The notes below the pieces were generated by a model, which saw only the letters and a list, made by a program, of their open reading frames with translations, was not told where the DNA came from and did not search any database. Positions 61,191 to 64,000 of a DNA stretch of 64,000 nucleotides are shown one piece after another. Origin of the DNA: Dyella sp. A6 (GTDB lineage: Bacteria; Pseudomonadota; Gammaproteobacteria; Xanthomonadales; Rhodanobacteraceae); assembly GCF_036320485.1 (NCBI RefSeq), contig NZ_CP132911.1:496001-560000 (forward strand). Direction: 5' to 3'. Made by a program: the position numbers and the translations under genes. Every line of letters begins with the position of its first letter. The stretch's first letter is position 1.

Positions 61191-62639
61191 TCAGGCGGCG
61201 TCGGCGAGCGTGCCGGAGTATTGCTGTGCGCCGGCTGCCGAAGTGCCCGGTTGCAGCAGTTCGCCATACCAGTGCAGCGAGCTGGCGAACGACGCCACTT
61301 CGCCGACGATCAGCAGTGCAGGTGCCGAGATCGCGTGGCGTTGTGCCAGTTCCGGCAGCTCGGCCAGCGAGCCGGTCAGGGTGCGTTGTTGCGGCATGGA
61401 GCCGTTTTCCACCAGTGCGAACGGGGTGGCGGCATCGCGCCCGTGGGTAAGCAGTTTCTCCGACACGGTATCGAGTCGGCCGACGCCCATGTAGAAGGCC
61501 AGGGTCTGGCGCTCGCGGGCCAGTGCCGGCCAATCGATGCGATCGAGGGAGTCCTTGCAGTGTGCGGTGACCAGCCGTACCGACTGTGCATGGTCGCGGT
61601 GGGTCAGTGGCACGCCAGCGTGCGCCGCGCAGGCAACGGCGGCGGTAATGCCGGGCACGACTTCGAAGGCGATGCCGTGGCGCTGCAGGAACTGCAGTTC
61701 TTCGCCGCCGCGGCCGAAGACGAACGGGTCGCCACCCTTCAGTCGTACCACGCGACTTCCCTTGCGTGCATGCTTCAACAGCAGGCCATGGATGTCGTCC
61801 TGCGGCGTGTGAACGCCGCCGCTGCGCTTGCCCACGGCGATGCGTTCGGCATCGCGTCGCGCCAGTTCGAGCACCGCCGCAGGTACCAGTGCGTCGTGAA
61901 GAATCACGTCGGCCTCGTTCAGTGCGCGCAACGCGCGCAGGGTCAGCAGGCCGGGATCGCCAGGGCCGGCGCCAACCAGGACCACGGAGCCGGGCGATGC
62001 TGCATGTGCCTGGGTTTCGAGCGCGGTCTGCAGCGTGTGTTCGGCCAGCGCCGGCTGTGCGGCGCGCAGCAGTGCACGCACCGGGCCGTCGTGCAGCCAG
62101 TCGTAGAACCGGCGGCGCTGTGCGAGGTCCGGGTGGCGATCACGGATGCGCGGTCGGTAACGGTGGGCCAGTCGTAACAGCGGGCCCCAGGCGGGATCGA
62201 GCAGGCCTTCGATCCGTTCACGCAGGCGGCGGGCCAGTGCGGGAGCCACACCTGCGGTGGAAATGGCGACCTGCAGCGGCGAGCGGTCGATCACGGCCGG
62301 CACCTGGAAGGTCGAGAGCGCCGGGTCGTCCACTACGTTCACCAGCCGACGCCGGGCGGTGGCTTCAGCGGCGATGCGCATGTTCAGCGGCCGGTCGCCG
62401 GTCGCCGCGATCACCATCCAGCTGCCCTTCTGCCAGTTGCGTTGATAGCGTCCGGGAAGATGCGTGATGCGCCCCTGCACGGCCCATTCGCCGAGAGTGT
62501 CAGTAAGTGTCGGGGCGCCGACGCTGACCCGCGCGCCGGCATCGAGCAGTGCCGCCGTTTTGCGCTCGGCCACCATGCCGCCACCCACCACCAGCACGGT
62601 GCGGTCAGTGAGATCGGCGAACAGGGGATAGAGCGGCAT
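61191..62639 (-). CDS. cysG: Siroheme synthase CysG
   Basis: 482 residues. The N-terminal bifunctional dehydrogenase/ferrochelatase has [20 protein letters not shown] and the C-terminal SAM uroporphyrinogen-III methyltransferase has [21 protein letters not shown], and [17 protein letters not shown]. It makes sirohaem, the cofactor of sulfite and nitrite reductases. It is divergent from the cysB leader with a 217-bp gap, consistent with control by CysB. Confidence 0.97.
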
Positions 62640-62856
62640 GGCGGCGGCGTTCGGGTGGAATGAGGCGGATCCACGTTACGGCATGACGCCGCGCGTACTG
62701 AAATGACCGCTATGAACGAGGTTATGCCGGGCCATCATGATCTCCGAAAGCCTAGGCTCAATAAGGATTCAAATGGATGGATAGACGTCCAAATTGTCGA
62801 TGTGTTAAGGTCGCGTGCATGTTGCCCGGCATGGTGCCGGCACCTGGAGATACGTC

Positions 62857-62964
62857 ATGCTGAAAATCATGTATAGCTATCCGCCGCGCACCATGTCCTG
62901 TCCGTGTTCCAAGCGTCGCGTCGATACCCCTCATTCACGCTCATCACTGGACAGGACATCATGA
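62857..62964 (+). CDS. 35-codon cysteine-containing leader ORF of cysB
   Basis: ATG 62857 follows a strong ribosome binding site GGAGA (62846-62850) at 6 nt spacing. The 35-residue product has Cys at positions 15 and 17 in M-S-C-P-C-S-K. Its TGA (62962-62964) overlaps the cysB ATG (62961) as ATGA, so translation is coupled. The first Cys codons lie in the left arm of an inverted repeat whose right arm covers the cysB ribosome binding site. The peptide itself has no known family. Expression is inferred from the signals only. Confidence 0.7.
   Translation: MLKIMYSYPPRTMSCPCSKRRVDTPHSRSSLDRTS
62893..62959 (+). promoter_or_regulatory. RBS-sequestering hairpin in the cysB leader
   Basis: ATGTCCTGTCC (62893-62903) and GGACAGGACAT (62949-62959) are perfect complements (11 bp, plus a possible G-U pair). 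The right arm contains AGGAC, the likely cysB ribosome binding site, and ends one base before the cysB ATG. The left arm contains codons 13-16 of the leader ORF, including the Cys codon TGT. The pairing would repress cysB translation unless a ribosome occupies or stalls on the left arm. Confidence 0.7.
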
Positions 62965-63968
62965 CCCTCACCCAGCTCCGCTATATCGTCGCCATTGCAG
63001 AGGCCGGCCTGAACATCACCATGGCCGCCGAAAACGTCTACGCCACGCAGTCGGGCATCAGCAAGCAGCTCAAGCAGCTGGAAGGGGAGCTCGGCTTCCA
63101 GGTGTTCACCCGGCGCGGCAAGAGTCTCGACAGCATCACGCCGGCCGGCGCGCAGGTGCTGGAGCGGGCCCGCATCATCCTCAACGAATCGCACAACATT
63201 CGTGCCCTGGCGGCCAATCTGCGTGCGGAATCGCGCGGTGAACTGGCGCTGGCCACCACCCACACCCAGGCGCGTTTCGTGCTGCCCGAGCCGATCGCGC
63301 GGCTCAAGAAGCAGTATCCCGACCTCAGCGTGCATATCCGTCCGCAGGGCGAGAGCCGGGTGATCAGCCTGTTCGAAAGCGGCGAGGTCGACCTGGCCAT
63401 CGTCAGCACCAGTGGGGCGCAGCCGGAGGGCGGCATCGCGGTGCCGCTGTATCGCTGGCGTCGACGTGCCGTGGTGCCGCGCGGGCATGCGCTGGCGAAG
63501 CTGAAGCGGCCGCTGCGGCTGGCCGATCTGGCCGATCTTCCACTGGTCAGCTACGAGTCCTCGCTGCAGCCGGAATCCTCGCTGCGCCGTGCGTTCGCCG
63601 CGGTCGGCCTGGAGCCGAACATCGCCTGCACCTCGGCCGATGCCGATCTGATCAAGACCTACGTGCTGGCCGGCCTGGGCGTGGGCATTCTCGCCGAGAT
63701 GGCATTGGGAGACGCTGACGCGCGCGAGCTGGTGGTGCTGGATATCGACACCTTGCTGCCCGAATGCATCAGCTGGCTGGTGTTGCGTCGGGACCGCGTG
63801 CTGCGTAGTTATGTGGCGCAGCTGGCGCGCCTGGTCGCACCGCAGCTGGACGAGTCCGAGCTGCGCCGTGTGGTGGCCGGCCACGCCGCTCCGTCCTGGC
63901 CAAAGGCGCCACTGTGGCGCGAAAGCGGTTCGCGCGGCAGGCGTGCGGCGGCGGTCCACGCGGCCTGA
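62961..63968 (+). CDS. cysB: LysR-family regulator CysB
   Basis: 335 residues. The winged helix-turn-helix N-terminus (T-L-T-Q-L-R-Y-I-V-A-I-A-E-A-G-L-N-I-T-M-A-A) contains T-Q-S-G-I-S-K-Q-L-K-Q-L-E, and the effector domain has the CysB-type T-H-T-Q-A-R-F-V-L-P and E-S-R-V-I-S-L-F-E-S-G-E-V-D-L-A-I-V-S-T. CysB activates sulfate assimilation genes with N-acetylserine and falls silent with sulfide/thiosulfate. The protein runs close to the window end but is complete. It is coupled to the leader ORF upstream and divergent from cysG. Confidence 0.96.
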   Translation: MTLTQLRYIVAIAEAGLNITMAAENVYATQSGISKQLKQLEGELGFQVFTRRGKSLDSITPAGAQVLERARIILNESHNIRALAANLRAESRGELALATTHTQARFVLPEPIARLKKQYPDLSVHIRPQGESRVISLFESGEVDLAIVSTSGAQPEGGIAVPLYRWRRRAVVPRGHALAKLKRPLRLADLADLPLVSYESSLQPESSLRRAFAAVGLEPNIACTSADADLIKTYVLAGLGVGILAEMALGDADARELVVLDIDTLLPECISWLVLRRDRVLRSYVAQLARLVAPQLDESELRRVVAGHAAPSWPKAPLWRESGSRGRRAAAVHAA

Positions 63969-64000
63969 GATCGTCGCGGGCACGGCGGTCCGCGTCCGTC

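What the first reader, a model, noticed from the sequence alone, without database searches (positions are those of the whole stretch)
62846..62964. Cysteine-codon leader ORF with a hairpin that hides the cysB ribosome binding site
A 35-codon ORF with a strong RBS (GGAGA, 6 nt before ATG 62857) ends by ATGA overlap with cysB. An 11-bp perfect inverted repeat pairs codons 13-16 (including Cys codon 15) with the cysB RBS. Ribosome stalling at the two Cys codons when Cys-tRNA is scarce would keep the RBS free. This would make a translational attenuator of the sulfur regulator itself, comparable in logic to erm leaders and to polycysteine attenuators in mycobacteria. I know of no such leader for cysB.
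Basis: partly seen in the sequence, partly recalled or inferred. Interest (0 to 1): 0.88.

Follow-up and report, generated by a model that had tools for sequence, protein, structure and literature searches.

The report
Cysteine-codon leader peptide before cysB
A short open reading frame with cysteine codons sits directly in front of the gene for a CysB-type sulphur regulator, recurs in many related bacteria (in one sister group with a complete textbook attenuator), and probably adjusts how much of this regulator is made to how much charged cysteine tRNA the cell has.

Summary
Observation confirmed: a 35-codon ORF (62857-62964) with ribosome-binding site GGAGA, Cys codons 15 and 17, ATGA overlap with cysB, and a perfect 11-bp inverted repeat pairing codons 13-16 with the cysB ribosome-binding site. 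Alone this is only mildly unusual. Comparison makes it convincing: a Cys-blind rule over 59 representative cysB upstream regions of the family found 20 ATGA-overlapping leaders, 19 with Cys and 12 with CC or CxC. In a sister family, 10 of 14 cysB upstream regions examined carry a Cys-rich leader followed by an intrinsic terminator, with a competing antiterminator; 4 of these 10 show the same divergent cysG-cysB arrangement. A cysteine-sensing leader of cysB is thus well supported. The specific hairpin is not: 9 of 11 pairs remain in R. glycinis, 7 of 11 in Fulvimonas; no double changes in the Dyella-group stem; other lineages hide the site with other stems or not at all. Leader translation, stalling and the sign of the response are inferred. 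New variant of a known kind (ribosome-mediated attenuation).

The parts
61191..62639 (-). cysG (siroheme synthase), divergent from cysB
   Evidence: NCBIfam NF007922 585.8 bits, cut-off 400; divergent cysG-cysB in 50 of 57 own-family loci with long flanks (records present in two collections counted twice)
62783..62790 (+). AGACGTCC, single MetJ-box-like site in the presumed cysB promoter
   Evidence: sequence; similar sites by eye in many own-family upstream regions; metJ gene in the genome; MetJ consensus recalled, no binding test
62826..62840 (+). CCGGC-ATGGT-GCCGG hairpin in the presumed 5' UTR before the leader
   Evidence: sequence; similar small hairpins by eye in some relatives
62846..62850 (+). 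leader ribosome-binding site GGAGA
   Evidence: sequence; GGAG-like site before most curated leaders
62857..62964 (+). leader ORF, 35 codons, ATGA overlap with cysB
   Evidence: Cys-containing ATGA-overlapping leaders in relatives
62893..62903 (+). left arm of the stem (codons 13-16)
   Evidence: pairing probabilities
62899..62901 (+). Cys codon 15 (TGT)
   Evidence: kept in R. glycinis and Fulvimonas sp. R45
62905..62907 (+). Cys codon 17 (TGT)
   Evidence: kept in R. glycinis, Ser in Fulvimonas sp. R45
62949..62959 (+). right arm of the stem, covering the cysB ribosome-binding site (AGGA 62953-62956)
   Evidence: opening cost 20.3 kcal/mol free, 6.2 with a ribosome at Cys15 or Cys17
62961..62964 (+). 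ATGA overlap: leader stop and cysB start
62961..63968 (+). cysB-family LysR regulator
   Evidence: NCBIfam NF009325 (PRK12680) 440.8 bits, below its cut-off of 482; CysB NF009326 284.1 bits, cut-off 436; Pfam HTH_1 and LysR_substrate

Best explanation
The ORF is a cis-acting leader peptide that senses charged cysteine tRNA and sets how much CysB is made. When Cys-tRNA is scarce the ribosome stalls at codons 15/17, covers the left arm and leaves the cysB ribosome-binding site free for new ribosomes; when Cys-tRNA is plentiful the leader is finished quickly, the stem re-forms between ribosomes, and cysB is fed mainly by ribosomes that end at ATGA. Shown here: the ORF, the stem, the recurrence of Cys-codon leaders before cysB, and the anatomy of complete transcription attenuators before cysB in a sister family. 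Inferred: translation of the leader, stalling, and that starvation raises CysB.
For: Cys-blind search of 59 representative upstream regions, all frames: 27 ORFs, 20 ATGA-overlapping, of these 19 with Cys and 12 with CC/CxC; against the window's short ORFs p = 0.001 for CC/CxC and 0.04 for any Cys. CC/CxC within 100 nt of cysB in 18 of 59 in the leader frame against 23 of 295 in the other five frames, p = 9e-6. All 15 distinct leaders of genus group g18 (Dyella) keep Cys11 and Cys13; Cys13 is written TGC or TGT. Curated leaders differ widely in sequence but mostly keep the start signal and Cys. Sister family f8: 10 of 14 upstream regions examined have a Cys-rich leader followed by a hairpin and a run of 5-9 T; terminator 97% and competing antiterminator 91% of cells paired, against at most 48% and 51% for slid versions. 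Folding: opening the window's cysB start costs 20.3 kcal/mol in free RNA and 6.2 with a ribosome at Cys15 or Cys17. Closure beyond the synonymous-recoding null (at most 5 of 100) in 8 of 26 leaders tested, 1.3 expected; I picked the 26 from 45 and they are partly related.
Against: Stem not conserved: 9 of 11 pairs in R. glycinis, 7 of 11 in Fulvimonas, and R. glycinis is no more closed than its recoded versions (84 of 100 reach it). The g18 stem uses other codons, has no double changes, and all 500 shuffles reach its pairing. The f8 helices stand out against slid versions but not against shuffles (61 and 139 of 500 reach the pairing). Nine of the 26 tested leaders are at or below their null (59 or more of 100 as closed: L001, L004, L023, L024, L047, L062, L068, L075, L084, L100 make ten with L001). 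Any stall from codon 12 onward frees the window's site, so the place of the Cys codons is not very specific. Right arm lies inside the leader ORF. dN/dS in the g18 leaders is only 0.68, and 0.67 in one other frame. 39 of 59 representatives lack such a leader by the rule. No expression data.
Confidence: 0.58

Rival explanations
1. Translational coupling gate. The stem blocks independent initiation at cysB; ribosomes that translate the leader melt it and restart at ATGA. Cys codons then slow the delivery of ribosomes, so Cys starvation lowers CysB (opposite sign), or leader translation merely licenses cysB.
For: 20 of 27 ORFs found by the Cys-blind rule end in ATGA (the 45 curated leaders were chosen in that frame, so they do not count here); right arm inside the ORF; leader ribosome-binding sites look stronger than those of cysB (by eye); several leaders have no closing stem.
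Against: Does not explain repeated CC/CxC/CCCC, nor the sister-family attenuators, in which a stall should favour read-through.
Confidence: 0.2
2. Rho-linked control. The C-rich, G-poor stretch between the Cys codons and cysB is a Rho loading site; the speed of leader translation decides whether Rho terminates before cysB.
For: C-over-G skew 0.38 at -65 to -15 in the window, reached by 0.7% of 50-nt windows; above 0.3 in 29 of 92 family upstream regions against 2.7% of windows. Rho was proposed for mycobacterial Cys leaders (PMC1262725, passages).
Against: The skew may reflect the codons used or an unstructured start region; it is also present upstream of cysB in loci without a curated leader; a stall would expose the site and give the less useful sign.
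Confidence: 0.1
3. The ORF encodes a small Cys-rich functional protein (metal or redox), its place before cysB being an operon arrangement.
For: Translated-looking, Cys-rich.
Against: Sequences diverge widely outside start and Cys; no Pfam or NCBIfam family for six leaders tested; sister family shows attenuator anatomy.
Confidence: 0.04
4. Chance: a non-functional ORF with an accidental inverted repeat.
For: CC/CxC in 7 of 41 short ORFs of the window; 10 places with comparable repeats in 64 kb; no stem conservation.
Against: Recurrence of Cys leaders and the sister-family attenuators.
Confidence: 0.08

Closest known systems
Polycysteine leaderless short ORFs of mycobacterial cys operons (Canestrari et al. 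2020; paper not held, seen only through citing passages and its title; leaders predicted earlier in PMC1262725, passages)
   Same: Short ORF with Cys codons upstream of sulphur genes, reading Cys availability through ribosome speed; PMC1262725 found no conserved terminator hairpin there
   Different: Those precede biosynthetic operons in Actinobacteria and are leaderless; here a regulator gene of a gammaproteobacterium, with a ribosome-binding site, ATGA overlap and a stem over the next start
uORFC-8-2 motif before cysS in Rhodobacterales (PMC8632094, passages)
   Same: uORF with two tandem Cys codons, inferred ribosome-mediated attenuation; close in anatomy to the sister-family f8 loci
   Different: Another gene (Cys-tRNA synthetase) and class (alphaproteobacteria), with an intrinsic terminator that the window lacks
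trp/his-type transcription attenuators of proteobacteria (recalled)
   Same: Leader codons of the end-product amino acid; sister family f8 has terminator plus antiterminator
   Different: No terminator in the window; the target is a regulator, not a biosynthetic operon
erm leaders (recalled)
   Same: A stall in the leader releases a hidden ribosome-binding site
   Different: Signal is a drug, not tRNA charging; as I recall, erm leaders do not overlap the main ORF

Membership tests
Amino-acid-responsive ribosome-mediated leader (attenuator), Cys type | short ORF with a ribosome-binding site upstream of the target gene | tested here: met
Amino-acid-responsive ribosome-mediated leader (attenuator), Cys type | codons of the relevant amino acid recur in relatives beyond chance | tested here: met
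   19 of 20 leaders with Cys, 12 of 20 with CC/CxC; window background 30 and 7 of 41
Amino-acid-responsive ribosome-mediated leader (attenuator), Cys type | RNA structure switched by the stalled ribosome | tested here: inconclusive
   present in the window and several lineages, absent in others, no covariation
Amino-acid-responsive ribosome-mediated leader (attenuator), Cys type | expression responds to Cys-tRNA charging through the Cys codons | not testable with these tools
   needs reporters
Transcription attenuator with intrinsic terminator | terminator hairpin and T-run between leader and gene | tested here: not met
   no T-run between leader and cysB in the window (read by eye; they overlap); met in 10 of 14 f8 regions examined
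Known Rfam leader family | match to a covariance model | tested here: not met
   no hit at E up to 1 in 61500-64000; six loci gave two sub-gathering hits, neither at a leader on its strand (a miRNA model far from the L180 leader; Trp_leader on the strand opposite the L178 leader, over its terminator region)
CysB (NCBIfam equivalog NF009326) | score above curated cut-off | tested here: not met
   284.1 bits, cut-off 436; best model PRK12680 440.8, cut-off 482: CysB-like, divergently paired with cysG

The most novel reading that the evidence does not exclude
The CysB-type sulphur regulator gene itself is under Cys-tRNA-sensing leader control in several families of one order of Gammaproteobacteria, and the same input (Cys codons upstream of cysB, often between divergent cysG and cysB) is wired to different outputs: intrinsic-terminator attenuation in one family, and stall-released translation initiation with several independently arisen stems in the Rhodanobacter/Dyella family. 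A natural series for watching an attenuator change mechanism while keeping its sensor.
Probability: 0.45. Interest if true: 0.85.

Novelty: new variant of a known kind. Interest (0 to 1): 0.7.

Why it matters
CysB is usually described as controlled by acetylserine, sulphide and its own promoter (recalled). A leader that reads Cys-tRNA charging would add a second input, at translation, to the top of the sulphur regulon, put a cysteine attenuator on a regulator rather than on a biosynthetic operon, and, since related families seem to use transcription and translation outputs, allow direct study of how one attenuator type turns into the other.

Tried and rejected
Class-wide spread: of 369 genomes sampled from the class, 88 had a match at 1e-60. 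I scanned upstream regions of 45 loci from outside the order and saw no consistent Cys leader by my reading; hits in family f154 (L158, L163) did not form a consistent leader among the 18 loci and were dropped.

Covariation in the stem: none in genus group g18 (0 pairs with a double change, all 500 shuffles at least as high); window, R. glycinis and Fulvimonas stems decay rather than covary.

A second CxC ORF at 62777-62863 is not Cys-rich in the Dyella upstream regions and lies over the presumed promoter: set aside.

MetJ boxes: the pattern search in the own genome gave 68 and 76 matches against 136 and 125 for the reversed control, so no enrichment; MetJ control of cysB stays a side remark.

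Selection and rows dropped: L013 (28% identity) and L124-L126 (metJ loci) left out of upstream sets; duplicates removed by identical last 150-200 nt. The 92-locus family set leaves out L028 and L036 (family f2) and also L012, although its duplicate L074 (G264) lies in the own family, so one CC-bearing leader is missing from the counts. The 92 are part of what 172 matching family genomes would give, chosen mostly by similarity to the window's cysB. The 45 curated leaders were picked by eye in the ATGA frame (43 in the family plus L012 and L104); the counts do not depend on that list. Curated Cys leaders L059, L065, L075 and L084 fail the ribosome-site rule and are not among its 20. Leader starts were chosen by me.

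Full report
Observation. The sequence carries everything described at the stated coordinates: GGAGA 62846-62850, ATG 62857, 35 codons, Cys at codons 15 and 17, TGA 62962-62964 overlapping the cysB ATG 62961, and a perfect 11-bp repeat between 62893-62903 and 62949-62959 that covers the AGGA of cysB. Seen alone this is modest evidence: CC/CxC occurs in 7 of 41 short ORFs of the window, two of them at this locus, an equal or tighter closure arises in 2 of 100 synonymous recodings, and the ATGA overlap follows from the Met-Thr start of these proteins.

What the gene is. The downstream gene is a CysB-family LysR regulator (best NCBIfam model PRK12680, 440.8 bits, cut-off 482; CysB 284.1, cut-off 436), divergent from cysG. 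The divergent cysG-cysB pair is seen in 50 of 57 own-family loci that have long flanks (some records counted in two collections). The window's cysB is 93% identical to that of Rhodanobacter glycinis, 92% to Fulvimonas sp. R45 and 80-83% to Dyella.

Leaders in relatives. Upstream regions were collected through searches of 99, 233 and 369 genomes, with overlap, and from named records; 92 distinct ones of the own family were read, a part of those that 172 matching family genomes would give. Curated examples: R. glycinis MLNIKQIRSAENMPCPCRASC..., Fulvimonas MQNLKPIRPLGHMPCPS..., Dyella MKRRPGWCVSCMCCAMRNAQPC..., others MTFLHKARCCCRQ..., MKPFEPTCCCCRRD..., MKIVNQCPCCCMCPR..., MKHAPCKRMCCRRAPPC..., MKRIGSECVACCRRF.... 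These were chosen in the ATGA frame. A rule that ignores Cys (ribosome-binding site, ATG/GTG start, 8-60 codons, all frames) over 59 representatives gave 27 ORFs, 20 of them ATGA-overlapping; 19 of the 20 contain Cys and 12 contain CC/CxC. Against the window's own short ORFs this is p = 0.001 for CC/CxC and 0.04 for any Cys. Frame control over all 59: CC/CxC in 18 in the leader frame, and 6, 5, 5, 6 and 1 in the other five (p = 9e-6). By this rule 39 of 59 representatives, among them those of most other members of genus group g1, show no such leader; four curated Cys leaders (L059, L065, L075, L084) also fail it for lack of a clear ribosome-binding site.

Sister families. In f8, a family of the same order, 14 of 39 genomes matched at 1e-45, with 15 loci; one locus lacks the gene start. 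Of 14 upstream regions examined, 10 have a Cys-rich leader (for example MNHYTNMCKCCNCPQTRRRVV, MPEIRTLMCRCKCPVPDGCVVC...VMCMCICLPPPGRVG; the weakest have only CC or CxC) followed by a G+C hairpin and 5-9 T; 4 show no leader. cysG lies divergent within the flank in 4 of the 10. On the alignment of the 10 the terminator pairs in 97% of 70 lettered cells and an antiterminator between the end of the leader and the terminator's left arm in 91% of 99, against at most 48% and 51% when slid; double changes are few (1 pair each), and shuffles reach the observed pairing in 61 and 139 of 500, so covariation adds nothing. This is standard attenuator anatomy; its sign is the usual one by inference. In f4, 9 of 10 genomes matched, with 10 loci, and 5 of the 10 show a Cys-containing leader-like ORF by my reading (L191 and L195 ending in ATGA; L194, L196 and L197 running into cysB).

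The stem. In the window the cysB start costs 20.3 kcal/mol to open and 6.2 with a ribosome at either Cys codon. Several genus-group g18 loci behave alike (L007 17.7 to 4.8, L006 15.5 to 5.5, L009 14.9 to 4.6) through codons 4-7; others of that group do not (L004 4.4, L011 7.0). L092 (9 bp), L027 and L012 (Cys codons themselves pair with the cysB start) use yet other pairings. R. glycinis keeps 9 of 11 pairs and is not more closed than its recoded versions; Fulvimonas keeps 7 of 11 but has another 6-bp pairing and is closed at 4 of 100. Of 26 leaders chosen for the recoding test, 8 were closed at the 5% level, more than the 1.3 expected (p = 3e-5 if independent, which they are not fully); ten were no more closed than typical recodings (59 or more of 100). 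Leaders with nothing to show include L023, L024, L062 (g13), L068 (g15), L075, L084 (g26) and L100 (g9). The g18 stem pairs in 89% of cells against at most 55% when slid, but with no double change and no excess over shuffles. So hiding the cysB start is recurrent, not conserved.

Mechanism. I favour a Cys-tRNA-sensing leader with stall-released initiation. The chief difficulty is the ATGA overlap: finishing ribosomes also open the stem and may restart on cysB, so the non-starved state is not simply off. The coupling rival and a Rho-linked rival (C-over-G stretch before cysB) remain. The sister-family attenuators argue for starvation increasing cysB expression.

Literature. Searches aimed at a Cys leader of cysB listed no paper that by title or start of abstract describes one; I did not open most listed papers, and only the open-licence library was searched. 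Precedents for Cys leaders on other genes: Actinobacteria cys operons (PMC1262725, passages), Rhodobacterales cysS (PMC8632094, passages), mycobacterial polycysteine ORFs (Canestrari et al. 2020, not held, through PMC9031893, PMC9094748 and PMC13236596, passages). No Pfam or NCBIfam family matched the six leaders tested, and no Rfam family matched a leader in the regions scanned.

Noticed in passing
L174-L180, L182, L183, L185 (family f8), e.g. L178:1282-1432: Cys-leader transcription attenuators (Cys-rich leader, antiterminator, terminator with T-run) before cysB relatives in a sister family.
   Followed up: yes
about -60 from cysB in e.g. L029, L032-L035, L037-L040, L043, L080, L087, L090, L119, L120: Many upstream regions without the ATGA leader share GCGATGTA about 60 nt before cysB (by eye); in another frame it encodes (M)RC(M/I/T)R, in genus group g1 in a possible leaderless ORF (e.g. 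MAITHVESSPSSGRLMRTRTMRCMRAQ...). May be a diverged one-Cys leader or a DNA/RNA element.
   Followed up: partly
window 62783-62790; similar sites: AGACGTCC MetJ-box-like sites, in some relatives in tandem, sit in the presumed cysB promoter; metJ is in 24 of 25 own-family genomes and 1 of 16 from other families.
   Followed up: partly
genomes G000, G006, G010 against the rest of G001-G014: Within one genus group, three genomes have a Dyella-like cysB (92-100% to the window) and the other 11 with a match have one only about 60% identical; where flanks were read both lie divergent from cysG. Possible gene replacement together with the leader.
   Followed up: no
L018, -84 to -57 from cysB: An 8-residue ORF (GTG start, VFRNLPCC, stop) with AGGAG before it, followed by an ATGATC...GATCAT hairpin: a minimal Cys-Cys leader not overlapping cysB.
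   Followed up: no
window 62896-62945: C-rich, G-poor stretch before cysB (C-G skew 0.38), common in the family: possible Rho site.
   Followed up: partly
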